Below, piece by piece: positions 576 through 62,221 of a DNA stretch of 64,000 nucleotides. A model generated the notes under the pieces. It did no database searches. It was not told the origin of the DNA and was given only the letters and a program-made list of their open reading frames with translations. Position numbers and translations under genes: made by a program. This stretch comes from Lepas anatifera (Eukaryota > Arthropoda > Thecostraca > Lepadidae), in NCBI GenBank assembly GCA_034440635.1, contig JAOTON010000315.1:613501-677500 (forward strand), read 5' to 3'. Within the stretch, counting starts at the first letter, position 1; each line of letters begins with the position of its first letter.

Positions 576-2846
576 GTGGCGCACGTGAAGCCGCGGACCG
601 CCGCCAGCGCCGCCCCGCGGCCCAACCGCACAACTATCACCAAACTCAACGACTCTGGCCTGGGCGCCACCCGCGGCTCGCTCGCCTCCAGCGCCGCCTC
701 CGATAAAGACGAACATGACAAGATTATCAAACAGGAAATGGCCCCAATGGCCACCAGCGAGGAGTTTCATGATGTCGGCGAAGGTGTCGAAGAAAGCGGA
801 GGCAGCGATTTTCAGGTGGGCATTCGGACCGATGGAGCGACTATCGCCCTTTCGGTGAACATCCACAAGGGCGCGAATGCCGCAGTGAGCCGGCCGCAGG
901 TGACCGTTAGTGACCCGGCCATCAAAGCTCGCGTGACGCAGATTCAGCGTCCAGGGTTCGGTTTTACCCAGCCAGCGGGTCTGACCCGCCCCCTGGTCTG
1001 TCTCACCCTGTTTCATCATCTGCTGTGTCTTCCACTGCTTCAGCTGCTCCAACATCGGCGAAACCATCCGGTATCCCTGCTTCACGCTCCACGTCGAACC
1101 TACACATGCGTCCGTCTCGGCCTAGCATGGTTCCACAGCCGGCCGCTAGAGCCGCTTCTGGCGCTGGTGTCGGCGTGACGTCACCTCCCGCCGGCGGGAA
1201 CAAACGCAGTGTTGCCCTGCCTGTGGCGCGGCCGACTCATTCGATTCTTGACCAAACGGTGAGAAGTAGGGTCACGCGATGGGAGGAGAAGGTTCACCAG
1301 ATATCGCGGGATGCGCTCATGGTGGCCCAGACACGAGCTACAAGCCAAGAACCAGCTGCCACAATAGGGATGACAGCGCCCGCCAACGTTCTGTCGCCAA
1401 CGGGACCGGCAAAGACAGGCGTCAGAACAGCTCGTGTGGCTGCTCCTGTCACGCCGGGAGCTCTCCAGCGCTGCCTCCCAGGCTCTCTCTCATCGTCTCC
1501 TATCGCTCTATCCACTCCAATCACCGCCAGTGTGCAGCAGCCGCTGCTGCTGCCATCGAGCGGCAGAAAACCGGACCTGAAGCCCAAACCGACGGAGGCG
1601 GTGAACTCGATTGTTCAGCTGCGCCGTGAGATGCGGCAGCTGACCAGGGATGTGGCCACATCGCCTCTGCACAGGCCCCGGCTGCGCGATACGGGTACCT
1701 GCACAGAGGCTACCACCAGTCCGCCTCGCTCGCAGGTTTCGCAAGGCTCCGGCGATCTCTCTCCGGTCCTCTCGGCCATGCAAGGATCCCGCAGCGGGAT
1801 CGAAGATTTCATCGATGACGAGATCGGAGATCAGCCGGCGTTTGGCGCCGCCTACCGGGCGGGCGCCATGTCGGATTCGACACACTCGGACGGGTTTATC
1901 GACGATGTTCTGACGGGAGTGGGCCTTTCCCTTGGCGCTGAGCCGCTGCCTCCGCTGGAGATCACAGAAACGGTGAAATCCTGCGACATTAGTGATTATG
2001 TGCGGCCGTTCCGTCTAACCCCGCGGCCGGTAGCTGCTTTGACTACGCTGGAGACACCGCTGCGCCGCCCAGCGACCGAGGCGGGAACTACAACTGCGGC
2101 CCGCCGTCAACAGATGGAAGAGCGCGCGGAGCGGCTAGCGCGTCGGCTACAGCTGCAAACGCCGGGGTCGACGGCGGCTGCGACTGAGTCGGACTCAGAC
2201 TCAGGACTCGGGTCCACCTACCAGAGACTGGGACTCAAGGACCCGGTGGTGTCGGATTCGGATCTACCAGCCGTAACGACTGAGGATGACATCACTGAGT
2301 CCCACGATACCATCTCTCCAGAGCACTCGCTACCGCGCGACCCCGACGATGGCGGCATCTGGTCTAAACCCGCCCTTAAACTGGACTCCTTCTCCCCGTC
2401 ACGTGGTTATAGCAGTTCAGACGCGGCGAGGTCACGTGGGGCGGACCGTGCTGAATCGCCGGAGTCACGAGACCCAGTGCGGCCCCTGGAAGATGAGATG
2501 ATAATGAGCGAGTATAGTAGAGAAGCGCTGAAGGAGTCTCACGACTCGTTCACGGAGATTCCGCGCGGGTTCGCACTGCAGGTGTCTCGCGAGTCTCAGC
2601 AGAGGGAGGACAGACCAATCGGCCGGGTGTCATGTAGACAGGACTCCTCCGATTCTGCTTCTGAGCTGTCTGGAGAGTACTCCCGGCAGGGGTGGAGGGA
2701 GTCGCAGGAGTCGGGTGACTCCACCCGGGAGGAATCGCTGGAGTCGCGCAGCAGCTGTGGTCGTCGCAGCGGAGGGAAGACGGGCGCGGCCGAGAGAGAG
2801 GACCGGGAGGAAGAGAGCTACAGCGACTTTGAAAGCCAGGACGAAG
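576..2846 (+). CDS. CCSER-like gene, large serine-rich exon
   Basis: Large exon of a putative coiled-coil serine-rich (CCSER/FAM190-like) protein. The acceptor follows a pyrimidine tract (ctaccccgaccccag) and the reading frame starts in phase 0 with VAHVKPRTAAS. The donor is GAAG|GTGAGC, phase 1. The 5' part (NRTTITKLNDSGLG, DKDEHDKIIKQE) reads in frame 3. The rest (SGIPASRSTSNLHMRPSRPS and onward) reads in frame 2. The switch sits at the C5 run 989-993; one more C gives a smooth GLTRPPGLSHPVSS join, so I read it as a sequence undercall rather than a broken gene. The protein is rich in Ser, Pro, Arg, Glu and Asp, has FIDDE/FIDDV acidic patches and no globular domain, and looks disordered. One very large serine-rich exon is also, as I remember, a feature of vertebrate CCSER1. 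Upstream exons with the start codon are outside the window. Confidence 0.75.
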
Positions 2847-3225: not shown

Positions 3226-3385
3226 CGTTCGCGTCGCTGGGCGGGTGCCGGCCGCGGGCGGCCTCCTACCGGCGCGTTTCGGAACTGCGCGAGGACGTGA
3301 CCTCCCCCACTGCCAGCGTCGGCTCCGATGACCTGATGGCGGACTTCGATAAGGACTCGGACACGCTCTGCGAAGACGAGGACAG
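3226..3385 (+). CDS. CCSER-like gene, exon with acidic DDLM motif
   Basis: Acceptor is ctgctctcttcag, donor is GACAG|GTCAGT. The phase 1 start completes the previous exon's codon (G+CG) and the exon ends in phase 2. The frame is open throughout: Arg-rich start, then SELREDVTSPTASVGS followed by DDLMADFDKDSDTLCEDED. The DDLM-D-acidic motif resembles the conserved DDLMLDL segment of CCSER proteins and is one of the two best links to that family. Length, phase and GC-rich third positions fit a real exon. Identification of the family is from memory of its motifs, not from a search. Confidence 0.75.
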
Positions 3386-19000: not shown

Positions 19001-19043
19001 GTTAACCAATAGACTTGATTCGTATCTCTTATCGCTATGGTAA
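16004..19043 (+). CDS. non-LTR retrotransposon ORF2 (endonuclease and reverse transcriptase)
   Basis: About 1010 residues when two frame changes are allowed for. The apurinic-like endonuclease comes first: MHMNCRSILNK, SISETWIDSN, GSGLYIK, TGDFNFDL, DIADHFPV. The reverse transcriptase follows: LKVAVIKPIFKTGDRS, NYRPISILP, FIDLKKAFDTVN, GVPQGSILGPILFLLYIND, and the catalytic LLYADDTALL at about 18173. A C-terminal cysteine-poor helical region typical of CR1/Jockey elements ends the protein. The frame changes at the A6 run 17561-17566 and the G5 run 18578-18582. One added base in each restores a continuous protein (for example CCLAWGVNYAS at the second). The function is nicking target DNA and copying the element RNA there. 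Confidence 0.9.
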
Positions 19044-29902: not shown

Positions 29903-30265
29903 CACCCCGCGACACTAGCTGCAGTACCTCTGTGATGCTACCTGGTGTCACCCCGCGACACTGGCTGCAGTACCTCTGTGATACTACCTGGTGTCACCCC
30001 GCGACACTGGCTGCAGTACCTCTGTGATGCTACCTGGTGTCACCCCGCGACACTGGCTGCAGTACCTCTGTGATACTACCTGGTGTCACCCCGCGACACT
30101 GGCTGCAGTACCTCTGTGATACTACCTGGTGTCACCCCGCGATACTGGCTGCAGTACCTCTGTGACACTAGCTGGTGTCACCCCGCGACACTAGCTGCAG
30201 TACCTCTGTGACACTAGCTGCAGTACCTCTGTGACACTGGACGGTGTCACCCCGCGACACTAGCT
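29903..30265. repeat. 46-bp minisatellite
   Basis: Seven or more tandem units containing GCAGTACCTCTGTGATACTA and CCTGGTGTCACCCCGCGACA. It ends about 45 bases before an exon-like segment at 30311. Confidence 0.9.
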
Positions 30266-43132: not shown

Positions 43133-43974
43133 ACACGCGCATTGACGGGGGGCGGGTACCCGCCCCCCCTCGGGTTTTTCGGAGACAGCAGAAAAACGGC
43201 GGCGCGTAGCGCCGCCGTACTTGGTATACCTTTTCCCTCATCATTTTTACAACTTCTGTGAAAATTTTAAGGTTAGGTCATCTCAGGTCAAGTCACCAGT
43301 ACAGGTCAAGTGACCCGACCTCAAAAAAAGTTTAAGATAGCATAAGTCGGAGCAGGGTGAACTTATACGATTGAAACTCACATCACACAATGGCCCCACC
43401 GAGTTCTCTAAAATATGTTCCGGTATTTTTGATATCGATGACCTAAGGTCAGGTACGAGGCATGACCTCTCCATTGGAAATACATGGGAAAAATGGTTTT
43501 TACGGAATAAATCAGTAACGGATGGTGATAGAGCATTTATTTTAGCTGCATTAGACTCGCCTGGGCTTTGCGGTTTTAATGATATGCATTTTATATAATT
43601 TGACCCTGACCTGACCTCAGGTCAGGTCAAATCCTTGATTTGACCTAGCAAGGTCAAATTATATATCATTCGATTCGGCTTGCTAAGAGGATTCATATAG
43701 TTCAAGTAGTTTTGCTCTATCTTTACTTGTTCAGATTTCATGGCCGAAAAACTGAATTTACATGTTATCCCTAGGACGGGCATGTTTTGACCTCTCGTGA
43801 CCTGAAATGTGACCTAACAAAAAAATGGTTCAAATGTTTTCGATGGAGAAGTGGATGGGCAGCCCAACGCCGTTTACCGTTTTTCGCTACCTACCGTGGT
43901 TCTCGAGATTTTAGGGGCGGGTACCCGCCCCCCGTCAATGCGAAGGTGGCTCAGACCCCCGTCAATGCGCGTGT
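43133..43974. mobile_element. AGGTCA-rich TIR element, copy 1
   Basis: Terminal inverted repeat ACACGCGCATTGACGGGG, flanked by TA on both sides. Just inside both ends lies the palindrome GGGCGGGTACCCGCCC. At the left end a second palindrome follows, CGGCGGCGCGTAGCGCCGCCG written as two 10-base halves around one base. The 540-bp interior has 15 AGGTCA/TGACCT half-sites. There is no transposase frame, so it is non-autonomous. It is nearly identical to 61378-62221. Confidence 0.9.
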
Positions 43975-44038
43975 TAAAATCGACCGGCTCCTACCCCTGC
44001 AGCAGGCGCCGGCACCCCGCGCTCTGATCCCTCCGGCA

Positions 44039-44185
44039 CAGGGGCGGATCCAGGACAACACTCGGAGGGGAGGGTCCACGAGCCTCTCCCGTCATTGCTT
44101 CGGGACAGTCTCCGGCTGTGCATTGATTATGGGCACTGTCTTTCGGGGGGAGGGTGGGCCAAAGCCACCCTTGTATCCGCCTCTG
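44039..44185. mobile_element. hAT-type MITE copy
   Basis: Begins CAGGGGCGGATCCAGGAC and ends TTGTATCCGCCTCTG. Flanks CTCCGGCA and CACCGGCA match at 7 of 8. Confidence 0.85.
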
Positions 44186-44561
44186 CACCGGCACCCCCTT
44201 GCTTTGGGAAGGGGGCGAGAGAAGTGGTGCGGGTGGGGCCAACAACGTTGCAGGGGAATTGGCACATTGCGCATGAATCCGCCTATGCACCACTCTGCGT
44301 AACGTCTACACATTGTGTGGCTGTTGTAATGCATATGCTGGATGTACTGTATTACCGGGGGGCAATGCGTTCCGTCGGTTTTTATCCGTATATACAGAAC
44401 GCATGCTGATTTCCTAAGTTGTCTTTCCAACTCCTCCATAGGGATGAGGTGTGTTACCAGAAACCAAATTAAGGCGTAACAATCCACGTGAAGAAAACTC
44501 GTTGCCAGTGATGGAACCGTTAATGACGCTGCATGACCCTTAGCTGATATTTCATCTCTGG

Positions 44562-44969: not shown

Positions 44970-45332
44970 GATAATGGGCTGGGGCGGAATAAGTAAGAAA
45001 CTCCCGTCATATCAACTGCTCAGTACTCGTAATCTTATTGAACGATTTTCCTGCGCCAACGAAAGTATACAGTTGTTTTTTAACATGATGTGAGTCAGGC
45101 TGTGGAGTTAAAGCCTTCAGGATTGTTGTGTACTCAAAATGAAACGTGGCTTCCTTTACACGATTTGTACCCGTAAACTGTTCCATTTCTCTAGCATAAA
45201 TGGGCTGTTTCGCACCCATACCATAATTTCTTCGTCTAAATCATATGTGTGAGACTCCGTCTAGTATTGTTACGTGGGGACAGCCGACGGGTGGCATTCT
45301 CTGATATCGTGTTTTGCTCCTCGGATTACAGT

Positions 45333-45501
45333 CCTATGTCTGTGATTTAACGCGTGCCTTTTGGCGCCATCCAGTCGTCAGCTGTTGGCGCCAACAGTTC
45401 CCGCCATAATCGTATCGTACAGCCCTCTCTCTATGATTTAACACGTGCCTTTTGGCGCCATCGAGTCGTCAGCTGTTAGCGCCAACAGTTCCCGCCATAA
45501 C
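45333..45501. repeat. 91-bp tandem duplication carrying E2F-like sites
   Basis: Two units with GATTTAACRCGTGCC, TTTTGGCGCCATC, AGTCGTCAGCTGTT and CAACAGTTCCCGCCATAA. Each has a TTTTGGCGCCA and a TTCCCGCCA, both close to the E2F consensus. Confidence 0.85.
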
Positions 45502-45832: not shown

Positions 45833-46829
45833 ATCGTCATGGGGCTGTGTTTCAGTGTTAGTACTGATGCCCTGTGCCCTGTCTTTCAGTGCTAGTACTG
45901 ATATCCCTGTGCCTTGTGTTTCAGTGTTACTAATGATGCCCTGTCTTTCAGTGCTAGTACTGATGTCCCTGTGCCTTGTGTTTCAGTGTTACTAATGATG
46001 CCCTGTCTTTCAGTGTTAATACTGATGTCCCGTGCCTGTGTTTCAGTGTCGGAACTGATGCTCTGTGCCCTGTCTTCCAGTGCTAGTACTGATGTCCCTG
46101 TGCCTTGTGTTTCAGTGTTACTAATGATGCCCTGTCTTTCAGTGTTAGTACTGATGTCCCTGTGCTTTGTGTTTCAGTGTTACTAATGATGCCCTGTCTT
46201 TCAGTGTTAGTACTGATGCCCCGTACCTGTGTTTCAGTGTTAGTACTGATGCCCTGTGCCCTGTCTTCCATTGCTAGTACTGATGTCCCTGTGCCTTTTG
46301 TTTCAGTGTTACTAATGATGCCCTGTCTTTCAGTGTTAGTACTGATGTCCCTGTGCCTTGTGTTTCAGTGTTAATGATGCCCTGTCTTTCCGTGTTAGTA
46401 CTGATGCCCCGTGCCTGTGTTTCAGTGTCAGAACTGATGCTCTGTGCCCTGTCTTCCAGTGCTAGTACTGATGTCCCTGTGCCTTGTGTTTCAGTGTTAC
46501 TAATGATGCCCTGTCTTTCAGTGCTAGTATTGATGTCCCTGTGCCTTGTGTTTCAGTGTTACTTATGATGCCCTGTCCTTCAGTGTTAGTACTGATGTCC
46601 CTGTGCCTTGTGTTTCAGTGTTACTAATGATGCCCTGTCTTTCAGTGCTAGTATTGATGTCCCTGTGCCTTGTGTTTCAGTGTTACTTATGATGCCCTGT
46701 CCTTCAGTGTTAGTACTGATGTCCCTGTGCCTTGTGTTTCAGTGTTACTAATGATGCCTGTCTTTCAGTGTTAATACTGATGTCCCTGTGCCTTGTGTTT
46801 CAGTGTTACTAATGATGTCTGTCTTTCAG
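45833..46829 (+). repeat. tandem array of complete 3' splice-site modules
   Basis: About 62-bp higher-order units of two monomers. One has TGTGCCTTGTGTTTCAG|TGTTAC. The other has TACTAATGATGCCC followed by TGTCTTTCAG|TGTTAG. I count 29 intact YTYCAG signals. Most are preceded 15-30 bases upstream by a branch-point-like TACTAAT or TACTGAT. The true acceptor of the next exon (TGTCTTTCAG|TGTTTCC) is the last member. Frames through the array are mostly open but the unit is not a multiple of three. Confidence 0.9.
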
Positions 46830-46946
46830 TGTTTCCGGCCAGGTGTCGCGTCTGCAGAGGATGCGACTTCGCAGCAGCACAGACGGAGGCCGGCCCTCCC
46901 CGACCCCGGCACCGGCCCCACCAGACTGCTCAAACCGCCCCGACAG
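46830..46946 (+). CDS. CCSER-like gene, basic linker exon
   Basis: A 117-nt exon, phase 0 to phase 0, with donor CGACAG|GTAAAC. It reads CFRPGVASAEDATSQQ, then HRRRPALPDPGTGPTR and LLKPPRQ, a basic Pro-rich linker before the conserved helical exon. The acceptor is the final copy of the splice-site array. Several in-frame AGs inside the exon (for example after ACTTCG) could act as minor acceptors. No domain is recognised. Confidence comes from phase, donor quality and continuity with the next exon. Confidence 0.7.
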
Positions 46947-47109
46947 GTAAACTGGCCCTCTCGCACACCATAGGAGAACCCGCCTTCCTCGACTTCGCGA
47001 GTGCACTGGCTCTCCCAGGCCCCTAAGTAAGCTTGGGACCCTGACCATACAGCTGAACTGGTCCTGCCTTACCAGTCAGCTAAATTGACCCCGCCGACCC
47101 CATAGATAG

Positions 47110-47757
47110 TTATCCCTTTAACAATGTCTGCGTTTGGCGTTGATTTCTCTTTTACAATGTCCGCGTTCGGGGCAGAGTTCTCTGTGACAATGTCTGCGTT
47201 TGGTGATCTCTCTGTAACTGCGTTCGGGGCAGAGTTTTCTCTGCAACAATATCTGCGTTCGGTGATATTCTCTCTTTGTAACTCAAACAACGTCTGCGTT
47301 CGGGGCAGAGTTCTCTCTGTAACAATGTCTGCGTTCGGTGCAGAGTTATCTGGGTATCGATGTCTGCGTTCTCTCTGTAACAATGTCTGCGTTCGGTGAT
47401 GTGACAACGTCTGCGTTCGGTGCAGAGTTCTCTCAGTATCGATGTCTGCGTTCTCTCTGTAACAATGTCTGCGTTCGGTGATGTAACAACGTCTGCGTTC
47501 GGTGCTGAGTTCTCTCAGTACCGATGTCTGCGTTCTCTCTGTAACAATGTCTGCGTTCGGTGATGTAACAACGTCTGCGTTCGGTGCAGAGTTCTCTCAG
47601 TATCGATGTCTGCGTTCTCTCTGTAACAATGTCTGCGTTCGGTGATGTGACAATGTCTGCGTTCGGGGCAGAGTTCTCTCAGTATCGATGTCTGCGTTCT
47701 CTCTAACAATGTCTGCGTTCGGTGATGTGACGTTTGCGTTCGGGGCAGAGTTCACAG
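47110..47757 (+). repeat. 82-bp minisatellite filling the intron to the acceptor
   Basis: Units contain AACAATGTCTGCGTTCGGTG, GTGCAGAGTTCTCTCAG and TATCGATGTCTGCG. There are four regular copies from about 47382, preceded by scrambled ones. The true acceptor GGGGCAGAGTTCACAG is a variant of the unit's GTGCAGAGTTCTCTCAG. Confidence 0.9.
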
Positions 47758-47868
47758 GGGGACGGCGGAGACTGGCTGCTGATCGACCGCGACACCTACA
47801 TGTACATGGCGCAGGACATCACCCACACCAAGACCATGCTGCACAAGCTGCGGAGGCTGCTGCAGGAC
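47758..47868 (+). CDS. CCSER-like gene, conserved helical exon
   Basis: A 111-nt exon, phase 0 to 0, with donor CAGGAC|GTGAGT. It encodes GDGGDWLLIDRDTYM then YMAQDITHTKTMLHKLRRLL and QD. The pattern DW-L...(F/Y)-M-QD-T--KT-L-K(M/L)-R-LQ corresponds closely to the block before the coiled coil in vertebrate CCSER1, as I remember that sequence. This is the best family evidence. Wobble positions are strongly G/C, unlike the surrounding array. Role in the cell is not established for the family beyond suggested links to microtubules and cell division. Confidence 0.85.
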
Positions 47869-48431
47869 GTGAGTGGGGCAGGGACGGCTCAGATGAGCTG
47901 ACGCTCACGGAAGGAAATGGCAAGGAAAGCGGAGATTCCGTTCAGGATGAAGCTCTTTGTAAACTATGATCTATATTCCACACTTATCTGCGAGTTTCGT
48001 ATAGGTACACATGTTTGGTGAGCTTGTTTAGAGAATGGGTGTTTGTGTTGTGCGGTTCAGTAAACGCCATAGTTACTTGGGAATGAATCCCTGGAAAAAA
48101 TATAAATTACCCTCAGAAAATGGTCTTGCCAAAACCATGACGATTCGGCCAAACAAAAAATCAGAATCCATGTTGCGTTCAGAACTAACCCAAAGGATCC
48201 ACTTAGATATGCATTCCCTGGAAGGTTGTAATGGTGCGGCCCGGGGTTCAAATGTTGAAATATAATCAGCGAGGTTTTCAAGCGTCCAGGTACCGACAGA
48301 GGCGTCCGCCTGTTGGTTGATAATTTCGTCTTTGAGAATGTGTTCTAGATCTCCTTCCTTCGGACGTTGTGATTCAAATCCGCCGGCCCCATCGTTCCCT
48401 CGTGAGTATAACAGTTTGTGTTCATCCTCAG

Positions 48432-48467
48432 GCGGAGACAGTAAACCCGTTCGAGAACAGCATACAG
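48432..48467 (+). CDS. CCSER-like gene, 36-nt microexon
   Basis: Twelve codons, AETVNPFENSIQ, phase 0 to 0. Acceptor is gtgttcatcctcag and donor is ATACAG|GTACGA. It continues the helical block. In CCSER1 an equivalent short Pro/Phe stretch follows the helix. Confidence 0.7.
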
Positions 48468-49009
48468 GTACGATGTTGCAGAGCCATTGGTTTTGTGGGT
48501 TATAGGTTGGAACAGTTGGTTAAGAGTTGGTTGGGACAGTTTGTTATTAGAACAGTTGTTTGTGCGCTATGCTGGATGTTCGTGCCTCACGACTTTGAGT
48601 TCGTCAGTAGACTACCCGTCGCTGGTTTTATAGTATGATTATCTCGGGGTGGCGTGTACCTTGGCCGATTGTAGTTTTTAGTTTTGAATCATGTCGTCTT
48701 CGTTAGATCACTTACGTATGTATCTCCAATCAAGGGGCTTTGAAGCTGCCATGCATTAAACTTGTAAAATGGATCCCTTAATTTTGCAATCTGTCTGTAG
48801 GGTCTTCGTTGGCGCTAGGAAGTCCAGTTTCTTGCAAGTCTCATTCTTCAGCCCTGTATGTCTGGTCCCATTTGCACCACTGTGCCTCGTTCGTCAGATC
48901 AGAAATTTGTTGTCTGAGTTGTTACATTTGTAGATCCGTATCTTGCTAGTCCTATTTCTAGCCCAAAGATGGCGCTGCCGCCGCTGACCTGCCCCCCATC
49001 TGTTGGCAG

Positions 49010-49147
49010 TCCGGAAAGCGTGGTCCCTCCGTCTCCAGCGAGTCACAATTGTCCTCAATAGATGGCCGGACCAGTTTAGAGGGCAGGCCGGCTATAGATG
49101 GCGGCACCTCCGATCTTGCGGCAGAGAACGCCGATCTGAAACGACAG
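49010..49147 (+). CDS. CCSER-like gene, serine-rich to coiled-coil exon
   Basis: A 138-nt exon, phase 0 to 0. Acceptor is cccccatctgttggcag and donor is CGACAG|GTGAGA. It reads SGKRGPSVSSESQLSSIDGR, then TSLEGRPAIDGGTSD and LAAENADLKRQ. The last eleven residues begin the coiled coil that continues in the next exon. Confidence 0.85.
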
Positions 49148-50795: not shown

Positions 50796-50918
50796 GTGGC
50801 ATCGCTACAGTCGCAGCTGGAGGAGAGAGACCACACCATCCACCTGCTGCAGCAGCAGATGGCCAAGTACGCCACAGTGCCGCTAGACGTCACCACCGTC
50901 GCCACACAGGCCACACAG
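50796..50918 (+). CDS. CCSER-like gene, coiled-coil exon
   Basis: A 123-nt exon, phase 0 to 0, donor CACACAG|GTACGC. It reads VASLQSQLEERDHTIHLLQQ, then QMAKYATVPLDVTTVATQATQ. With the end of the previous exon it gives four to five heptads (LKRQVASLQSQLEERD), a clear parallel coiled coil. It corresponds in position and style to the CCSER C-terminal coiled coil. An internal CAG|GCC nine bases before the donor could give a three-codon splice variant only if used as an acceptor, which is unlikely. Confidence 0.85.
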
Positions 50919-51357: not shown

Positions 51358-51386
51358 CCGGTGGCGGAAGATCCCCAAGTCATCAC
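51358..51386 (+). CDS. CCSER-like gene, 29-nt microexon
   Basis: Acceptor is ggttttttctgcccacag. Donor is ATCAC|GTGAGT. It reads PVAEDPQVI plus two bases of the next codon (phase 0 in, phase 2 out). Splice signals at both ends are strong for so short a segment. Confidence 0.65.
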
Positions 51387-52842
51387 GTGAGTACAGAAAC
51401 TATTTTACCTAAAAACAAACCCATCGTCTTTAGAGCCTTTGTAGGATAACGGAAATATGGTATGGTGTGTATAAATAATAGTACAAGCATGGAATAAAGA
51501 TACCTGGAACGGAAGCCTCATTGATTTCTGGGATGCTTTATCTCTTTTCCATGGTACAAGGATGTGTTTAAGTAGACGGAAATGCCAGCGTTTTTTAATC
51601 TACCAGATTTAGGTATTTAGTATATTTCTGCTTACTTCTTAGTTTTTTTGTAGTCTTCTTTGTAGACATTGATGGGGGATCGGTTGTATAAAAACGCTGG
51701 AATTTGGTAGATCTGCCTGTTAGACCTGTTCAGAGGCTGTGGCTAATGTAGTGGTTCGGCTTTGGTTGATTTGCGTTCATGATGAAAGCCTTTACCGTGG
51801 TTTCGGCCTTGTTTTTTTAGGTATCGGCCAAAGCCTGATCTTGAAGCGACTTTGAAGTTCACATCAAATTGATCTGCGTTCATATTACCCGGACTTCATT
51901 CATTCAATTTCATTCACCCCCAAATTGATTCAACTTCAACTTTTCGCCCGCTGTTTTCGGTACCATCATTCTTGGCAGTTACAGTATTGCGGAGGTGATA
52001 CTGTTCTGAATCTGGTCCTTATTTTTTAAAGATCAGGTGTCTTATAACGGTGCCCTTCCCTTTTATTTATGATTTTTAATGGATCTGAGTAAACTTCTTA
52101 CATCACTAGCCTGGGTTACTGAGTTTTCTACTCACTTAAGATAGGAAACAAGATTATAATATTGCCAACATTGCTGGGGACAAACTTGCGGTAATCATTG
52201 CGTAAGAAGTATGGCTGAGCATCATTTAAACATTCTTTCAATGATAAGAAAAAATGGAAACTTTAAAATTTTCATTAACTTTATACCTAGGTACTTTGTA
52301 CTTGAGACTTGAGGCACTTTGTATGTTGGAACATGTGTTTAAATGTCAGCGTGCATTGGATGTAAAAATATATTGTCTGCCTATAAAACTGATCTGTTTT
52401 TTCTATGAAACACGCCACCCCTCACGTAATTTCCCTCCTGTATAGTCTGTTGCCAAAGTATTGTCCCAATCATATGGTGTCGAACAGCTCAGGATAATGG
52501 ATTTTAAAGGCCCGTGCCTAATCGCCATCCTTTGGGTTTGAGGAGCTCCCAGTGATGAAGATTATATTGCTGATTAGACATGAAGTTCTCAAACATTCTG
52601 AACTAAACAGCTCATTACCTGAGGGCAGGCACGATACTTATGCAATAGAATACACTGCCGTGCAAGGGAAGAAAGCTATCTCCAGTGTATTGACAATGAT
52701 AGATCCTTGTTTCCTTTACATGACAGCACTACCCTCCCCTCATGACGCCCTCTGCCCTGTTACTGGAGCTACCCCCTCCCCATCTGTGAACATCGCCCCC
52801 TGGTGTTAACCTCTCCCACCTCTGCGCCCCGCACTGCGTCAG
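51387..52842 (+). other. intron, no feature seen
   Basis: AT-rich, without recognisable repeats or exon-like segments. The last 70 bases form a pyrimidine-rich approach to the next acceptor. Confidence 0.5.
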
Positions 52843-53038
52843 GTTCAGGATTGGCCAGGTAGGAGCCGTGGACGCCTGTCTGGGTGTGCTTCTGTTGGCT
52901 GCCCCGCTGTACTTGTCCCTAGCCCTGCTCTGCTACCCGACACTCGATATCCCGGGAGGTATTATAGGCTTAGCGCTGTGCCTGCACCTCAGAAAGGCTT
53001 TGCTTCAGGGAATGCGACGCTTTTATTGTGGGGTTTGA
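52843..53038 (+). CDS. CCSER-like gene, last exon with hydrophobic tail
   Basis: The acceptor ends a long pyrimidine-rich stretch (gccccgcactgcgtcag). The phase 2 start completes AC+G as Thr. The frame reads FRIGQVGAVD, then a hydrophobic span ACLGVLLLAAPLYLSLALLC, then YPTLDIPGG, a second weaker span IIGLALCLHL, and a basic end RKALLQGMRRFYCGV before TGA. This looks like a tail anchor or hairpin in a membrane, with the coiled coil facing the cytosol. A second AG six bases on gives the same frame without two residues. The layout recalls the membrane tails of syntaphilin and syntabulin, but I cannot claim homology. If this exon is not used, the 51358 microexon must join one I have not found. 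Confidence 0.55.
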
Positions 53039-53431
53039 ACCGAGAAAGCAAGAAGACAGGGTGTACCTGGCCATTTCTGATTGTTATTTTTTATATAAAT
53101 TTTGTCCAACTTGTTCCTAGTACGGCTGTTGGAGTCTGAGTCTCACTAAAGTCCTCAGGGAACTTGTCACGGAGACCCCGACCCCATCACCCGAACAAGC
53201 AACTCCCACAATGAAGGGATACTATCATTAATTTTACATGTGGAACTCGCCATGCATGAGGGAATAGGATTTGAAAGAGCGGGTCCGGGCCCTCTGCTCC
53301 GCGTCGGCCGCAGTTACCACTGACGACACTCCGCGCGGCCTAACGGTTCATAGGGGAATGGGAGGGGAGGCGTTAGGTAAGGCGGTTCAAAAAGAAAAGC
53401 TCTGTTTGCCCTCAAAATGTTGTTCAAACGT
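53039..53431 (+). other. probable 3' UTR
   Basis: Follows the TGA at 53036-53038. No AATAAA lies within the first 800 bases; the first good one is near 53892. The poly(A) site is therefore unassigned. Confidence 0.35.
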
Positions 53432-53629
53432 TTATTCGTAAAATGTGTAGAACAACACGGCAACGCAATTCTGCTCCTGCACGATCTTGTCCAGGATTTT
53501 AGTGCTGACCTCGATCTGGTCTGGAAGCTCCATGGTGTCCAAATTGGTGAGGAACTCCAGTACGGAATCCTCGTCCATCAAGTCACCGCACTGAGTGACA
53601 GTTGCCCCATCTTGCCCACCCTGGACCAT
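53432..53629 (-). pseudogene. fragment of a thioredoxin-fold repeat protein
   Basis: The minus strand reads QCGDLMDEDSVLEFLTNLD, TMELPDQIEVSTKILDKI and VQEQNCVAVLFYTFYE, then a stop. The pattern DEDSVLE(F/W)LT...ELPD-IE-V--K-L-K...VAV-FY is one I associate with long arthropod proteins made of thioredoxin-like repeats. The expected cysteine-bearing segment after VLFY is absent. With no donor there either, it is probably a stray exon copy or decayed fragment. Family naming is from memory only. Confidence 0.4.
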
Positions 53630-53993
53630 GTAGGGAGGCCATCCACTGTTGTTTGAGAGGCTCGAACACTACTGTGTGCGGTGTTGCAAATGTATCCCGA
53701 AAAAGTATATATTTCAAAACGTGCCATATTGAAGTCCTGCTTCAGTTATGCCGCCCGGACAAAAAAGTAACGTTTAACAAATAATGGAGAAATGCACAAA
53801 ACACGTTTTTGGTTAGATGTTTGATTATGCATATATTGATTTACGAACCGTGTTAGAAATCATAAGCACGGGAAACATGTGCTAATGTTATAATAAAAGG
53901 AAATATATTAAATGTCAAATAACGTTAAAACATATATTTATTCTCGGTACAATTCAGTGCATTCTCTCACACTTGCCCACGACCAGTGACATA

Positions 53994-54135
53994 TACATGG
54001 AGGCGCTACGGGGCTCAAGCCCACCACCCCCACCCCAGCCTGAGCGCCTATAGTTATCATATAGTAGGAGGTTATTCGAGGTAAAGGTGGGATTGAGCCC
54101 CCCCTCCCCGAAATGAAAGTCTGTATCCGCCGCTG
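53994..54135. mobile_element. hAT-type MITE copy, diverged left end
   Basis: Begins CAGTGACATATACATGGAGG and ends CTGTATCCGCCGCTG. 54136-55149 holds nothing else I can support. Confidence 0.55.
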
Positions 54136-55149
54136 CCCAAAACTCTAATGTGACGGTTACGGAGAATCAACGTTTATAGCAAATTCGATATGTACCCTAC
54201 ACTCGCTGATCCAGAGGGCGCTTTGATATATTGTTTTTTTCAGTTTGTCCTGGTATCAATTGTATGCCCGCCACAGCACGCCTGATGCTTGGTTATTTTA
54301 TATGGATATCGCTTCTGGTAAACTCACGCTATGTCGCTTTGCAATATCTCCTGGAATTGTTTCTGAGTATTTTTTAGTATGGCATGCCTGCTTGGTAAAG
54401 AAATATACGTTACAGCAGAACATCAGTTTATGAAATATTTCTTCATAACGTTATAAAGATGGAAATGTCTTGTTCGAAAGCTGCATAGGCATCGCGGATA
54501 TTGTCATGTATTGATTTTGTCTTCGCTTTCTTCAGGTTTCACCTTCTTCAGGTGGCTTAAACATTGTTTCGTTTCTATTGGACTGCATTTACGCTGCTGC
54601 TTCTTTGTCTTGCGATGGTGTTTCTTTGGTGGATGCTCCACATCTATCCTACTAATGCATGTCTCGATAGGAAAAAACGCAGTGTGCAACCACGAATTGC
54701 TTGTAATTCTCAACGCGACGAATAGCTTAGTTCAAATCCAAATGAAGCAGGCATATTCCCTTTAATGCAAAATCAATGTCTGATTTGGAGAAGTGAGACA
54801 CGTTAGAGCTTAGGGTGGCGACTGCAGTTAGCTTTGGTGATGTTCTTAAGGCCGGGTTGTCGGAAGACATTTCTGTCACGCTTCAATCCTGTGCTGTAGC
54901 ACGGGCGGAGAACAGAAACACGGCCGATGCATGGTTGACCAGTCCACATCTGTATGTAGAGCTGATCCCCGGTCGTACATAACTGACCCCTGGTTGTATG
55001 CAGTTGGCTCCCGGCTGTTCGTGGTTGGTCGCCGACTATACCCTCAGCTTTGTCCGTCTCGAGCGGGGCTCATCTTGGCCCGGATAACTCGGGGCATGTC
55101 CTGGTGTCGCTGTTTTTTTTCGATCGCACGTTAGTGTATCTGTAATAAT

Positions 55150-55375
55150 TATTGTCGGGGTGTACCGACGCACCGGCAGATTTTTTTGGGCGGGGGGAGT
55201 GGGGGACTTATCGACGCACCAACTGCCAGGGCCATATGTATGTTGTCACCAACTCTCTCCCTGTTGGAAGAGTTTCTCGGTAGCCAGCTTGCCCCTTGTT
55301 CAGGGCAGCCGCCGGGCCTTGAACCCGGGTCGGCTGAATGGTCGCTGACCACTCCACTACCGCGCCCTCTGGTCC
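55150..55375 (-). mobile_element. tRNA-derived SINE
   Basis: On the minus strand: a tRNA-like head with CGGGTTCAAGGCCCGGCGG (B box), then the body AACAGGGAGAGAGTTGG and CCCTGGCAGTTGGTGCGTCG shared with 62227 and 62450. A 40-base G/T-rich insertion splits the tail. Confidence 0.75.
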
Positions 55376-55574
55376 CGTAGATGTATGGCGGTGTGAATGT
55401 TATACACGCATTCGCCTCCGAGCTGTACTGTAGGTAAAAGAGTGTGTAACTTCGATAACTCCCATGCTTGGAGCTGTGGTGTAAAATGTTGGGGTTTTAC
55501 GATAGACGAGTTGGTAATGTCTTACTGTTCCGCCAAATTACACCGTTTCTGGATGGATGACAGGGAACAGAACG

Positions 55575-55630
55575 CTGTTTATTCTGGGCACCCGCCGGGA
55601 CTTGAACCCGGGACATTTGCCTGAAGCAGG
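55575..55630 (-). mobile_element. SINE head fragment
   Basis: Only the tRNA-like B-box region (CCCGGGTTCAAGTCCCGGCGG in reverse, written here as CGGGTTCAAGTCCC) is clear. 55631-57846 shows no supported gene. 56990-57080 is GC-rich and could be a distant promoter, without direct evidence. Confidence 0.45.
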
Positions 55631-57846
55631 CGCTTAGTAGCATTGCATTTATTTTTCCTCGCATGCGAGTGGGAATTTTGTCGCTTATATCTGCCTGGGT
55701 TTAGTCAGCTGAGACGTCCTTCACTGTTCCTGAGCGGCTCTGGGAGGTTGATTTATGCACCGATCTAAACTTCAGTGTACTATTTGTTATGTTCTGAATA
55801 AAGAATACACTTGAGTTAGTGAGTGAGGCATGCTACTTCCATCTGTGAAATATGGTACCATTTTTGTTTCTCAAGTTTCAATTACTATCCAAAACAAAAT
55901 ACCCCTTATAGGTGGACTGAAGTTCTCGGAGAGCTTCATGGAGATGGGGCTGTCTGAAATATTAAAAAGAATGTCGTTTCACCCTAGGAAGATTCCGAAG
56001 AGAAAGAGTGTCCAAAATTCTGAAAATATTGTATAGCTTGAATCTGTTTAGGGTTAAGGGTTATTCCTTCCTCATACATATAGGTGAAGCAATATAATAG
56101 AACCTAAGACAAACATCATTGTGTCTCCGCTTCTGTTTTGCGAGTCAAATATAAGTCGTTGAAGTACTTAGCCGTATCCCATTTCAGAATTTGACTCACT
56201 CGCGTTCCCTATGTTAATGGTAGGCATGCCCTCTTCTCCAAGACGATACCGCTGTACACTACCACTGAGTGTGAACTCGCTTTATTTCAGCGTATGCGCC
56301 GGTAAGTGAGCAACACCAATAGCAACTGGCGGCGTCTAGTCGCCATGGCAACGACTCGCTCGGACAGGCGACATCGCGAACGCTGCGAGTCTCCAAGAAA
56401 CGCGAACACGGTCGACTGGTGGGCTGTTACCAGGACAGCATCTGTCCAATTCAAGACTGGTGCAGCAAAGACATGAGAAGTCTCCCGACGGGAAACCGGT
56501 ATCATCTAGGAAGGCAACGGCTTAAGCGGATGGTGCTCAGACACGAAGTGCTTGGCTGGTATAGAGGGTAGGCTTTGCTTTCATGTTGATTTGTTTTGAC
56601 GAAGATCTGTCACAAAATCCGAATGCGGCCCCGTATAATCATTGGCGTGGAAAGATTGTAGTTGATTATCGTTAGACCTGCGTCCAAAACGGACTGATGG
56701 CTGCCAGTGGCGCAGGCTTTGAATTTTTCCCCTACATCGAAAGTACCCGTGTTTACTTGAATCTCGCGTTTGTTTAGGGTTTTCGTGTGAGCAGCTTTGT
56801 GTCGGACGCCCGTATTTGCCTTGAACCGAAGGCAAAAGACGCGAGTGTATGTAAAGATTGATCCCCAATGTCGCTTCCATTCCACAAATGAAACGATGCG
56901 TCGTTCGTGTTCGGCGTGAAATCCAGTGACTGGTGACTATCTGTGATCTTCGTGCTGCGTGCTGCGTGAAGAAACACTAAGCCACTGAAAACGTGGAGAC
57001 AACCAGAGCGACGCTAGCGCCGCCTTTGTGCAACGGCAGCCGAGCGAACTGGAGAGCGGTGGAGTTGTGAGTTTGTGACATCACCGACAACAATGCCAAA
57101 GATTTTCGTGATGTGAATCGGCGTGATTTGTGTGTTGAAGAGAGTCTGCTACAGAAAGAGAAAGATGTGAATGTGCGTAATGGGGTGAAATCTGTGGGTG
57201 CGTGAATTATTGGTGAGCTGAAGTCTTCAGATTGAGGAGTATGTGGTCATTTGGTGTGCGGTGCGAGTTGTAGACCTGGCCATTTCAAAGAGCGATCAGA
57301 TTATACAAGGGAAATATTCAATCGTGTGGAAAGGGCTGGGGGATTTGGGTAGCAGCAACAGTGAGGTGGCCACAGCATACTGTAGTAAAATATCTGTAAA
57401 CTATCGGTATTCAAAATTGGGCATGCTGGAATTATTGAGGGGTAGTGTAAACTTGTGCGTTTTCTTTCGTTTCCGGCTTTTCGTCACATCGGTGTTAACC
57501 TGGGTCTTAAACCTATGTGTGAACCAGCTTGAGGGAGGACTCATGTAGCGATGGCGCCTTGGTTTTAGTTTTCAATCGTGTTTTAACAGATTCCCGGGGA
57601 AGCTCATATGACCTGCATCTGTGATTGTCCCTTGCATTCCGTTTATTTGCAGACGGCGGTGTCGCTTGTACGTGTTGTGGTGCGAATCATTCCCTGGCTT
57701 CGAACGTCGAGTTCCTGCGGTGTTCTAAAGTAGCTGGATCCATTTATATGTGTCATTCCAGAATAAAGCTACGTGATTCTGTGCGATTTATCTGTTGTGG
57801 CGTTTTAGTCGAGGGTACCACACTAGGGGGCGGAGCGGCGGAACTG

Positions 57847-58140
57847 AAAGGGAATGTGGCAGCTTGGTCGAATCCTGGAATTTAGTGTAATTAAGCGTTG
57901 CTTTAGCCGAAAATAATGAAACCGGTCATGATTTCTCTAAAAAATGTACAATAAGCTCAATATTTTGATTTTTAAAATACTCCTCTAGAAAAATAAATAA
58001 ATATCCGCCTGTGGATGATGTCACGATCTGGCAACCACTACCATACCCGAAACGCTTCAAGGGCTTCGAATGGCTGATGCTCATCGTGACCTCAGCATAT
58101 GTCGTCACACCAGCAGCTCACAGCAATGGCCGCCTGGCGA
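57847..58140. mobile_element. non-autonomous DNA element, second copy
   Basis: Matches 8066-8350 over most of its length (AAAGGGAATGTGGCAGCTTG, AAAAATGTACAATAAGCTC, CGCTTCAAGGGCTTCG). The CRE of copy 1 is changed to TGACCTCA here. The right terminus is not recognisable. Confidence 0.7.
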
Positions 58141-58590
58141 AGAGGTACAGTCCCCCGCAATTGAAATTGCCATAACTAGGCTCGACCGGTTTAGGATGGA
58201 TATCTTGCATCCTATGGTGCCTATAGGTTTAGAAACGGGTGCATCATGTGTATTTTTTCAAGAGCTTTCCAGTGGTCACCATTATTTACTAATCTGACAT
58301 CTGGGTGAGAAAATATTACACAATTACTGATTTTGCTGCTTTCTGACGGGGTAGTCTTCGGCTGACTTGCCACCGCCTCTGATAATCCCTGACCCTCTCG
58401 CCCATACCTGGACCACGTGACCTCACAGATGAATGGGCGGTTGGCATTGTGCCAGCTCATTCATCCCTCTCACAAATCTTGTCGTGTCTGAGGGGCACTC
58501 GTATTGCAATTGCTCCCACTGTGTTGCTGTGTGCTGGACAACTGGCGTCACTGACCTGGGGCCCCGGTCAGTGGCAGAAACCACGCAATG

Positions 58591-58722
58591 CAGTGGCAGA
58601 ACCACGAGTTGCTTTTTGAGGGGGGAGCAATATCCAATAAGATGGGCACAGATGGGGCCAACCATCGGAATATATTTTGCTGCGGGGAAGCACACGAATT
58701 TTCCCTCCTATATCCGTCCTTG
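58591..58722. mobile_element. hAT-type MITE copy, diverged
   Basis: Begins CAGTGGCAGAACCACGAG and ends CTCCTATATCCGTCCTTG. Confidence 0.5.
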
Positions 58723-58892
58723 TGCTTGGGTTGCGAAACATGTAAGCTGTCATTGGCTGCCGGGCTCCCCTCACCTGCATGTTTATTTAGACAGGATTCT
58801 GGTAAAACGGCTGATACAGTGATACAACTTTGTTTGGAGGTTTCATTAAAATAATATTTTCAGATACTCGTCAGAAGAGGGGACAGTTGGAG

Positions 58893-59163
58893 CCATAGGT
58901 GGATCCAAGGGTAAAGGAATGCAGGTCCCCCTCATTGACCCTCGGCGTCCCTAAAATGATCACAGCATTCCTCTAAACGGTCGATGACACTTCCTGAAAT
59001 GTCACTTCCACCCCTCCCCCAGGATGCGAAAATTGGCACCCCGCCATAGGATTTGGCACCCACCTGAAAGCTTTTACCGGCCAAAAGTGGCACCCAATTT
59101 GTACGGATGACGTCCCACCCCCGGCAAGGTGACCCCCATCGGTGATCCTGGATCCCCCTATGG
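58893..59163. mobile_element. hAT-type MITE copy
   Basis: Begins CATAGGTGGATCCAAGGG and ends CCTGGATCCCCCTATG. Flanks GTTGGAGC and GTGGGGGC match at 6 of 8. Confidence 0.7.
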
Positions 59164-59627
59164 TGGGGGCAGGCCCCCAATTTTCATTAAACATCGCGAT
59201 TTAAGAAACAATAGGAAAATCGGGCATTGTGTGGGCAGCATTTTGCGAAGGTCTCAAGAAGCCTGAACCTGACGAGGTTTTGTTTTTAGATGGGAAATTT
59301 TCTTGTCAAGGGTGACGGTTCACTGGCTCTATCACTGTTTCGTCGGTGGCGGCGATTATTTATTATGGGACAATTGCTTCCAACTAAATGAGCTTAATTC
59401 CGTCCACAGAGAATTTTCAAATTTCCAGCTTGAGAACCTTTGTAGAGCCTATTTCTCGGGAGCATAAAACCGTGCTCTCGCTTGACTAAAATCACGCAGT
59501 CGTCTCCCTCTTAACGAACGGCAGCCATTGCTTTAACTGGGGAGGATAGAGTTTCCATGAACTGGCCTCTAGACTGACATCACACGGTGCAAGCTTGGCA
59601 TAGCGTTTGCGATAGTCTCTAATAAAA

Positions 59628-59800
59628 ATTGTTGGGGTTAGACGCCGCTCCAGCTCTCAATGTTATATGGCGTTACCAAATCTCACCCTGTAAGGATAGA
59701 TTTGGTGCATCTGATCAGCATACCTATTCAGAGAATCTCCCGGGACATGAACCCAAGGAGATGAACCCGGGGGGAGTTGAGCCAGGGAATTAGCGCTAGG
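59628..59800 (-). mobile_element. old tRNA-derived SINE
   Basis: ATTGTTGGGGTTAGACGCCG and CTCACCCTGTAAGGAT match the 3' body of the family. The tRNA-like part (CGGGACATGAACCC) has decayed. Confidence 0.55.
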
Positions 59801-59970
59801 TTTCTTGCGGCCTTTTGGCAGCACCCTCACTTGTCGGAAGGATTTGATCATATTTTATGCTGAAAATATTAGATAATTTTAAGCAGTATTACAAAGGTAT
59901 AAAAGCTTATGTAGCAGCTTTAGCGGTGATAGTGCTGGTAGTTGTGCGTATCATTAGCGGTAAAATTGGT

Positions 59971-60426
59971 CAGTGATGGATCTAGGCGGTAGTTTTGGTG
60001 GGACAAACAAAAATCGAAACGCAGGAAAAAACATCACGCAGTGAAAGCTTTTGCAACAATCTAACTAGCCGGCAGGTTGGGGAGGCGGGGAGTGGGGATT
60101 AAATATAAGTCGAAAAGCAAAACAAACAGGCGTCACTGGGTGAAATATGTGGCCACAAAATGCTTGCTTTCGATATCCAAGGATCATTCACCCAAATACG
60201 ATTTAAAATATCAAGAGGACCAGGCTCCAATATTCACACTGAAGTTGACTGGTTCTGTTTGAAAATGATTTCTTCAGTTAAAGCACCAACACCTTGCTTA
60301 TGAACTTAAAAGGAGCCGGGGAAAAGGTCGACAGCTTAGGGGAGGGGGATAACATTATGGTTTTGCTCCGAGCTTTTTCGTTCGAGGAGAAACACGTATT
60401 GTCCCCCCCCCCTTGGGTCCTCCATT
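59971..60426. mobile_element. long-subfamily MITE copy
   Basis: Begins CAGTGATGGATCTAGGCGG and ends CTTGGGTCCTCCATTA. The interior matches 42648-43045 over about 300 bp. Confidence 0.7.
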
Positions 60427-60696
60427 AGAACTGGATGCTGTTTGAGGGGCCTTGTTGCCACGTGCGACCACCGAGGGTAAAAGGGCAGTGAATAGTGATT
60501 GTTTCTCTGATGAAATCCACCAACTCGAGAGCTACTACTCTTCGAAATTTAGCACGACATTGGTTCCAGCTATTATTGATGTTAAAATTGTTCGATGTGT
60601 CGCTGAAATGAAGATATTTTAGGATAAATATTGTTTACATATTTTGGTTGGGCGAAACCAGACTATTACCCGGGGGACCTTGTAACCAAAGCCTAC

Positions 60697-61025
60697 CTTT
60701 GGCGGACGCAGGGGGCATTCCGGTCATGGCCCCCCAAAGCGCTGGAGGGGGCCAAACTATCTTTCCCCCCAAACGCCGGAGAAATTTTTGAAAAAAGGTG
60801 TGTACACTAAGCCTGTAGAGCAAAAAAATATTCGCTTCCCCCTCCCCCCCGGAGAGCGATCATGCACTTGGAGAGGTAGCTTATACTAAATCTGTCGAGC
60901 ACTGAAAAAAGGTGTTTACAATAGGTATGTAGAGCAAAAAATATTTGCTCCCACCCCCTTCCCCCCCACAGGAGGACAGGCAGACATGGGTTTGCCCCCA
61001 AAACTCGGGTCTGCGTACGCCCCTG
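60697..61025. mobile_element. hAT-type MITE copy, GGACGCAG subfamily
   Basis: Begins CTTTGGCGGACGCAGGGG and ends GTCTGCGTACGCCCCTG. Flanks AAGCCTAC and AAGCCCTA are similar. Inside, the phrase GTACACTAAGCCTGTAGAGC recurs in variant form, an internal duplication. Confidence 0.75.
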
Positions 61026-61377
61026 AAGCCCTACGCTGCTCCCTTGACCTGAGAGGGTATATTACCAACAAGACTAAAATTGGACTGGAAACGAATGTTA
61101 ACCTGGTCTGATTCTGGTTTAGCCGAGAGATTATTATCAGTATATTGTTTTGGGATTTCATTGAGTTTAAATCTTTAGCCTCGATAAATTTTTGAGAACT
61201 CCCGCAGCCTAATATTGAGCCCCTTGGGCTAAAGGGTGTTTTAAGCTCGTGCAATCTTTCGAAAGCCTAGCTGGCTCTGAGGCCCTAACTATCGTGCATC
61301 CATAGCTGCCATCTCAACTTAACGTATCTGCATTGGTTTTGGTCGCCCGGAAAGAGGCACATAAGCATTTATCACTA

Positions 61378-62221
61378 ACACGCGCATTGACGGGGGGCGG
61401 GTACCCGCCCCCCTCGGGTTTTTCCGAGATAGCAGAAAAACGGCGGCGCGTAGCGCCGCCGTATTCTGGTATACCTTTTCCCTCATCATTTTTACAACTT
61501 CTGTGAAAATTTTAAGGTTAGGTCATCTCAGGTCAGGTCACCAGTACAGGTCAAGTGACCCGACCTCAAAAAAAGTTTAAGATAGCATAAGTCGGAGCAG
61601 GGTAAACTTATCCGATTGAAACTCACATCACATAATGGCCCTACCGAGTTCTCTAAAATATGTTCCGGTATTTTTGATATCGATGACCTAAGGTCAGGTA
61701 CGAGGCATGACCTCTCCGTTGGAAATACATGGGAAAAATGGTTTTTACGGAATAACTCAGTAACGGATGGTGATAGAGCATTTATTTTAGCTGCATTAGA
61801 CTCGTCTGGACTTTGCGGTTCTAATGATATGCATTTTATATAATTTGACCCTGACCTGACCTCAGGTCAGGTCAAATCCTTGATTTGACCTAGCAAGGTC
61901 AAATTATACATCATTCGATTCGGCTTGCTAAGAGGATTCATATAGTTCAAGTCGTTTTGCTCTATCTTTACTTGTTCAGATTGCATGGCCGAAAAACTGA
62001 ATTTACATGTTATCCCTATGACGGGCATGTTTTTGACCTCTCGTGACCTTAAATGTGACCTGACAAAAAAATGGTTCAAATGTTTTCGATGGAAAAGTGG
62101 ATGGGCAACCCAACGCCGTTTACCGTTTTTCGCTACCTACCGTGGTTCTCGAGATCTTAGGGGGCGGGTACCCGCCCCCCGTCAATGCGAAGGTGGCTCA
62201 GACCCCCTTCAATGCGCGTGT
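61378..62221. mobile_element. AGGTCA-rich TIR element, copy 2
   Basis: Same TIR, end palindromes, TA flanks and half-site content as 43133-43974, differing at roughly 20-25 positions by eye. High identity points to recent activity of the family. A SINE starts five bases after it. Confidence 0.9.

What the first reader, a model, noticed from the sequence alone, without database searches (positions are those of the whole stretch)
45833..46830. Thirty consecutive 3' splice sites: a tandem array whose last copy is the real acceptor
Each monomer carries a near-consensus branch point (TACTAAT or TACTGAT), a pyrimidine tract and CAG|TGTT at functional spacing. I count 29 intact copies before the true acceptor TGTCTTTCAG|TGTTTCC, which is itself array-derived. 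If upstream copies compete, the cell faces a ladder of acceptors. Each choice would add array-encoded residues and shift frame, since the unit is not a multiple of three. It could work as a splice-site reservoir, a splicing-factor sponge or a length-dependent switch, with allelic copy-number variation as a natural dial.
Basis: partly seen in the sequence, partly recalled or inferred. Interest (0 to 1): 0.9.

Follow-up and report, generated by a model that had tools for sequence, protein, structure and literature searches.

The report
Intron end multiplied into thirty acceptors
In an animal gene, the closing signal of one intron stands about thirty times in a row right before a likely exon, and a second array of different sequence ends at the next exon; most likely this is a harmless repeat that grew out of the splice site itself, and only the last three copies would be able to lead to an intact protein.

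Summary
Window 45856-46829 contains 31 complete monomers (24-27 or 33-35 nt). 30 of 32 unit ends keep CAG, and 24 of 31 monomers carry TACTAAT or TACTGAT 17-23 nt before it (24 modules against 0.08 in shuffles). The last copy abuts a likely exon (46830-46946) of a gene with arthropod relatives. The donor given at 34346 is weak. New here: a second array (47108-47753) with no detectable similarity to the first ends at the acceptor of the very next exon, though its copies are weaker acceptors. All 27 intact acceptors upstream of 46768 meet a stop in all three entry phases; only 46768, 46803 and 46829 can be productive. Intron sequence of the same lengths is closed in 98% of draws, so this is no sign of design. 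Splice-critical positions vary no less than others (7/280 against 20/618, P=0.68). Best reading: a 3' mirage, the boundary-spanning minisatellite described in amphioxus (PMC3087553), mostly neutral, spliced from exon-proximal copies. A copy-number splicing dial is not excluded but has no positive evidence. Species, transcription and junction use could not be tested.

The parts
45856..46829 (+). Array 1: 31 complete monomers, most of them a short complete 3' splice site (TGTT/TGCT + branch-point-like heptamer + pyrimidine-rich stretch + CAG)
46463..46758 (+). Most recent growth visible in the array: exact 172-nt repeat at 124-nt spacing (46463-46634 = 46587-46758)
46743..46829 (+). The only three potentially productive acceptors: 46768 (entry phase 1), 46803 (phase 2), 46829 (phase 0), phases counted for the conserved downstream frame 0
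46807..46813 (+). Branch-point-like TACTAAT of the last copy (branch A at 46812, 17 nt before the AG); 11 of 12 in a simple U2-pairing score
46830..46946 (+). Likely exon behind array 1; frame 0 ends in TRLLKPPRQ, resembling LRPPR(Q/P/S) of arthropod relatives; donor at 46947
47108..47753 (+). Array 2: no detectable similarity to array 1, 82-nt higher unit with GGGGCAG|AGTTC; its last copy holds the acceptor of the next exon
47758..47868 (+). Next exon, GDGGDWLLIDRDTYMYMAQDITHTKTMLHKLRRLLQD (start at 47758, or at 47749 in the same frame)
48432..48467 (+). 36-nt exon AETVNPFENSIQ, resembling AETINPFD.. of spiders and SETGSPFDTSLQ of P0002
49010..49147 (+). Exon SGKRGPSVSSESQLSSIDG...LAAENADLKRQ
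50796..50918 (+). Exon VASLQSQLEERDHTIHLLQQQMAKY...; 43-nt degenerate direct repeat before its acceptor
51358..51386 (+). Exon PVAEDPQVIT
3226..3385 (+). Nearest upstream exon of the same gene found (SVGSDDLMADFDKD, resembling SIASDDLMLDYEK of spiders); ends in phase 2
914..2846 (+). Large serine-rich coding ORF, in phase with 3226-3385 (true 5' start not determined)

Best explanation
Array 1 is a minisatellite whose monomer is a near-complete 3' splice site and whose last copy abuts a likely exon, and it most likely arose by repeated tandem duplication of that intron's own end (a 3' mirage), with splicing predicted to use one of the last copies. Shown: the array, its acceptor-like copies, and a second array of other sequence that ends at the next exon. 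Shown: every intact acceptor upstream of 46768 meets a stop in all three phases before the donor at 46947. Inferred: the duplications started at the real boundary, because both arrays include the first 4-5 nucleotides of the exon. Inferred: unequal exchange or slippage homogenises the array and extends it at its exon end. Inferred: exon definition from the donor at 46947 favours the nearest copies, while transcripts spliced to distal copies carry an early stop and are removed by nonsense-mediated decay, so the array is tolerated rather than used.
For: Array and chance control. Exon and gene. Two of the 7 modelled acceptors lie within 5 nt of the end of a tandem array (P about 1.6e-4; post hoc, with 16 array ends of period 20 or more chosen by hand from the 46 rows, nested and short-period rows dropped). 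Recent duplication: an exact 172-nt repeat at 124-nt spacing. Neutral pattern: 7 of 280 critical cells vary against 20 of 618 others, P=0.68. Stops: for array 1; in array 2 only 47748 and 47757 of 13 sites scoring 0 or more are open in the conserved frame. Precedent: amphioxus genes with tandem repeats over exon-intron boundaries, said to leave regular splicing undisturbed (Adh3 data and globin RT-PCR; PMC3087553 and PMC3902484, passages read).
Against: TACTAAT and TACTGAT pair with U2 better (11 and 10 of 12) than the best heptamer before the seven other acceptor sites of the gene tested (at most 9), and 30 of 32 AG are kept, which would also fit selection. Array 2's copies are poor acceptors (0.1-5.1 in the matrix; best branch score 5-6), so the likeness of the two arrays is one of position more than of parts. 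No RNA data. The frame of exon 46830-46946 is not settled: frame 0 fits the next exon and the relatives, but codon usage prefers frame 1, and the nearest identified upstream exon (phase 2) does not fit 46829 in frame 0. The species is unknown. Only 4-5 exon nucleotides are in the repeats, so the claim that they span the boundary is thin.
Confidence: 0.66

Rival explanations
1. Copy-number throttle: the upstream copies compete for U2AF and U2, and each wrong choice gives a transcript with an early stop, so array length would set how much protein is made.
For: 30 intact acceptors and strong branch-point matches; all 27 distal acceptors closed in all three phases; recent growth at the exon end, hence probable length variation.
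Against: No sign that splice-critical positions are better kept than others. Random intron positions of the same lengths are closed in 98% of draws. Published mirages did not disturb regular splicing (PMC3087553, passages).
Confidence: 0.12
2. Plain minisatellite that happens to lie beside an exon; its acceptor look is incidental.
For: The window is rich in minisatellites (46 rows); 14 of the 16 array ends considered are not within 5 nt of a modelled acceptor. Array 2's copies are poor acceptors.
Against: The monomer is branch point, pyrimidines and CAG (24 modules against a shuffle mean of 0.08). Both arrays end at exon starts (P about 1.6e-4, post hoc). The acceptors 46842 and 46857 inside the exon score 4.9 and 5.1 against 7.0 for 46829.
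Confidence: 0.12
3. Phase selector: the last three copies offer acceptors in three different entry phases, and the productive one is 46768, which adds about 20 array-encoded residues.
For: 46768 is the only array acceptor that is in phase with exon 3226-3385 (ends in phase 2) and open through frame 0.
Against: An unfound exon between 3386 and 45855 could supply another phase: spider relatives have more residues at this place. An indel inside exon 46830-46946 would also explain the phase conflict. I saw no such insert in the 6 relatives aligned.
Confidence: 0.07

Closest known systems
Amphioxus mirages (Adh3, globins BflGb6 and BflGb9, PGBD5, troponin C)
   Same: Tandem repeats at exon-intron boundaries of ordinary genes, with copies carrying splice signals; a 3' boundary among them (BflGb6); several genes; signs of recent homogenisation
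   Different: Here the repeat holds only 4-5 exon nucleotides and the unit is a minimal acceptor of 24-35 nt; 31 copies against 6 and 3 in BflGb6 (150-160 bp units); two consecutive introns of one gene; host not shown to be amphioxus
Dual-specific splice sites in tandem-repeat genes (human UBC; PMC10809524, passages read)
   Same: Splice sites repeated by a tandem array, giving a ladder of possible choices
   Different: In UBC the array is coding and each site acts as both donor and acceptor; here the array is in an intron, has no donor-like hit, and its 62-nt dimer is not a multiple of three
Poison exons and NAGNAG-type tandem acceptors (recalled, no call)
   Same: Alternative acceptor choice leading to an early stop or to small changes
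   Different: One or a few alternatives there, about thirty near-identical ones here; use not shown

Membership tests
Mirage (boundary-spanning minisatellite) | Tandem repeats of an exon-intron boundary of a gene | tested here: met
   Array 1 ends at 46829|46830 and array 2 at 47748|47749 or 47757|47758; the units include the first 4 (TGTT) and 5 (AGTTC, if the exon starts at 47749) exon nucleotides. The exonic share is small and the exon starts are predicted.
Mirage (boundary-spanning minisatellite) | Copies carry splice signals | tested here: met
   Array 1: 30 of 32 AG intact; 24 of 31 with TACTAAT or TACTGAT. Array 2: weaker, 13 sites scoring 0.1-5.1
Mirage (boundary-spanning minisatellite) | Regular splicing is undisturbed | not testable with these tools
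   No RNA data are held
Mirage (boundary-spanning minisatellite) | Length instability between alleles or tissues | not testable with these tools
   Only one haplotype; an exact 172-nt repeat at 124-nt spacing suggests recent change
Mirage (boundary-spanning minisatellite) | Host is a cephalochordate (so far reported there) | tested here: inconclusive
   The host could not be identified; protein relatives found are arthropod (P0004, P0005, P0007-P0009) or unnamed (P0001-P0003, P0006)
Dual-specific splice-site array | Same site works as donor and acceptor | tested here: not met
   No donor-matrix hit above 5 between 45500 and 46946
Conserved regulatory splice-site cluster | Splice positions kept better than the rest of the unit | tested here: not met
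   7/280 against 20/618, P=0.68, low power, 28 of 31 monomers used

The most novel reading that the evidence does not exclude
The array is a length-tunable splicing throttle and phase selector: thirty competing acceptors of which 27 are self-poisoned, because the branch-point motif TACTRAT itself contains a stop codon and the 62-nt dimer rotates it through all frames, while the last three copies offer three different entry phases. Allele length would then set the output of the gene, and the next intron carries a second, independently grown device of the same kind.
Probability: 0.1. Interest if true: 0.8.

Novelty: new member of a known kind. Interest (0 to 1): 0.5.

Why it matters
It is a natural competition assay: thirty similar acceptors in cis before one exon, many of them tellable apart by small sequence differences, so long reads could show how the spliceosome chooses among nearly equal sites and how distance to the donor counts. 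Two consecutive introns ending in arrays of different sequence suggest that acceptor regions may be prone to tandem growth in this genome. It also shows why growth could be tolerated: with a period not divisible by three and a stop inside the branch-point motif, misuse of distal copies ends in an early stop, as it would in most intron sequence, as long as the last copies remain in use.

Tried and rejected
RNA structure hiding the copies: 339 nt at the exon end fold with z = -1.15, 12 of 100 shuffles as good; rejected. Rfam families at their gathering scores and tRNAs (bacterial settings): none in the window. Donor in the array (recursive or dual-specific splicing): none above 5 bits. Antisense acceptors: 0 of 178 minus-strand matrix hits fall in the array, although the branch-point-plus-CAG pattern matches there 7 times. 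Intervening exon between 3386 and 45855: a profile search with six relatives and an exon scan (best 60 rows seen) gave no convincing one. Copies of array 1 elsewhere in the window: none by blastn. Relatives of the locus: none in viral contigs by unit pattern or by protein; no collection of animal genomes was searched. Species: not determined. Gene name: the protein reminds me of vertebrate CCSER1/2 (recalled, not tested); pieces of this gene reached no Pfam cut-off and one 31-residue piece no PDB chain. The Adh paper on amphioxus of 2002 is not held; I know it only through PMC3087553. Literature searches for minisatellites with splice acceptors (listings only, 20 of 52 papers and 15 of 464) showed no similar array outside amphioxus among the papers listed; this is no proof of absence. 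The codon training set contained the exon itself in frame 0; one search repeats the count without it. The first join of exons ran one base too far in one exon; one search corrects it.

Full report
What is there. The stretch 45856-46829 splits into 31 complete monomers. Two forms alternate: B (33-35 nt, about TGYTAGTACTGATG..CCTGTG..TTTCAG) and A (26-27 nt, one of 24, TGTTACTAATGATGCCCTGTCTTTCAG). By the order of forms there is one B, then three six-monomer units BABABB (about 191 nt, a period also found), then six BA dimers of about 62 nt next to the exon, where an exact 172-nt repeat lies at 124-nt spacing, a sign of recent growth. 30 of 32 unit ends keep AG; of 31 monomers 15 have TACTGAT, 9 TACTAAT, 6 a one-base variant and 1 none; the branch A lies 17-23 nt before the AG with no AG in between. 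Such modules number 24 in the array, 0.08 on average in shuffles of it, and 4 in the rest of the plus strand, as its shuffles predict (4.45). They also occur 7 times on the minus strand of the array, since part of the motif is palindromic, but no minus-strand site there reaches 6 in the acceptor matrix, against 26 on the plus strand. The matrix scores are 6.2-9.3 for 26 of the 30 intact acceptors and 1.3-4.9 for the other four; other acceptors of the gene model score 8.1, 8.3, 5.2, 11.4, 10.2 and, behind array 2, 3.7 or 0.1.

The gene. The window's plus strand encodes a serine-rich protein with a C-terminal coiled-coil-like part (my description by eye). Tblastn with a 157-residue relative (P0002, unnamed source) placed three exons. 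A search with the predicted protein found six relatives: a mayfly, four named spider entries and one unnamed. The alignment supports 3226-3385 (SDDLM), 47758-47868, 49010-49147, 50796-50918 and 51358-51386, and the exon scan shows a 36-nt exon 48432-48467 (AETVNPFENSIQ) that resembles AETINPFD of the spiders. Exon 46830-46946 lies between. In frame 0 it ends in TRLLKPPRQ in front of GDGGDWLLID; the six relatives have LRPPR followed by Q, P or S a few residues before the matching DGG/EENG part. In shuffled-residue tests frame 0 scores best of three for 5 of 6 relatives, but only one is clear (P0006, P=0.007; the others 0.06-0.31), and for P0004 frame 1 is higher. Codon usage prefers frame 1 (15.5 against 7.7 bits). 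Frame 0 is in phase with the next exon; frame 1 is in phase with 3226-3385. So either an exon is missing between them (spiders have more residues here), or another acceptor or first exon is used, or there is an indel in the exon. I keep this open.

Acceptor use. Independent of that frame question, I read from each of the 30 intact acceptors to the donor at 46947 in all three entry phases. All 27 acceptors from 45855 to 46742 meet a stop in every phase. 46768 is open in one phase, 46803 in two, 46829 in three. A plain cause is that TACTAAT and TACTGAT contain TAA and TGA, and the 62-nt dimer moves them through the frames. Control: random positions elsewhere in the window (3400-11000, 20000-45000, 52000-62000), read over the same 27 lengths, are closed in all three phases in 98% of draws (82% at the shortest, 204 nt), so this is no sign of design.

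A second array. The following intron (46947 to 47748 or 47757) consists for the most part of another array (47108-47753, 82-nt higher unit) with no blastn similarity to array 1, whose last copy, GCGTTCGGGGCAG|AGTTC, carries an acceptor of exon 47758 (or 47749) and in the latter case runs 5 nt into the exon. In array 1 the shared exon part is TGTT. Array 2's copies are weaker: 13 sites score 0.1-5.1, three upstream copies (5.1) above the ones next to the exon (3.7 and 0.1), and only the last two are open in the conserved frame; the best branch heptamers there score 5-6 of 12. Two of seven modelled acceptors within 5 nt of an array end is unlikely by chance (about 1.6e-4, post hoc, with 16 array ends chosen by hand). 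The acceptor of 50796 has only a degenerate 43-nt duplicate; nothing comparable was found before 3226, 48432 and 49010 (regions 2850-3230 and 48000-49012); 51358 was not examined.

Selection. Within monomers of equal length (28 of 31; the two 26-nt and the one 24-nt monomer were left out), 7 of 280 cells at branch heptamer and last three bases differ from consensus against 20 of 618 elsewhere, P=0.68. The test is weak because the copies are not independent, but it gives no support for selection on each copy. On the other side, TACTAAT and TACTGAT score 11 and 10 of 12 for pairing with U2, while the best heptamer before the seven other acceptor sites tested in the gene reaches 9 at most; 7.2% of random positions reach 9 and 1.2% reach 11.

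What it most likely is. Tandem duplications of exon-intron boundaries are known in amphioxus as mirages: Adh3 (units 10-72 bp), globins BflGb6 (6 and 3 units of 150-160 bp in two haplotypes) and BflGb9, with copies carrying splice signals, length instability and, by the authors' RT-PCR, regular splicing (PMC3087553, passages); PGBD5 and troponin C are added in PMC3902484 (passage). The structure here fits that kind, with more copies, smaller units and two introns in a row. I could not find out whether the host is amphioxus. Mechanism, inferred: duplication starts at the real acceptor, unequal exchange spreads and homogenises it, the donor at 46947 favours near acceptors by exon definition, and the rest is removed with the intron or by decay of faulty mRNA. 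Regulatory readings remain possible and testable.

Noticed in passing
window 15956-19043: LINE-type element with endonuclease (PF03372) and reverse transcriptase (PF00078) split over overlapping frames, so probably inactive; an ORF of 268 codons without a Pfam hit lies upstream at 13445-14251.
   Followed up: partly
window 11569-11701: 21-nt repeat reading in frame as a 7-residue motif (LYRxxPE..) directly behind the acceptor with the highest score among the listed exon candidates (12.9); entry phase 1 would suit exon 3226-3385.
   Followed up: no
window 43775-44302 and 61980-62192: Two places share the reading LTSRDLKCDLTKKWFKCFRW.., probably an interspersed element.
   Followed up: no
proteins P0001-P0003 (unnamed jgi contigs): Relatives of the same gene differ mainly in the number of coding repeats of the type GGRxSVD, a length-variable coding repeat in the part matching exon 49010-49147.
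   Followed up: no
window 5491-5810, 6241-6710, 29896-30220, 45327-45500: Further minisatellites (units of about 30-105 nt) in the same gene region; none ends within 5 nt of a modelled acceptor.
   Followed up: partly
window 45856-46829: The junction of copies TCAGTGTTAGTACTGA is nearly self-complementary, so the AG of one copy could pair with the branch site of the next; the fold of the region is not significant.
   Followed up: partly
   Followed up: partly
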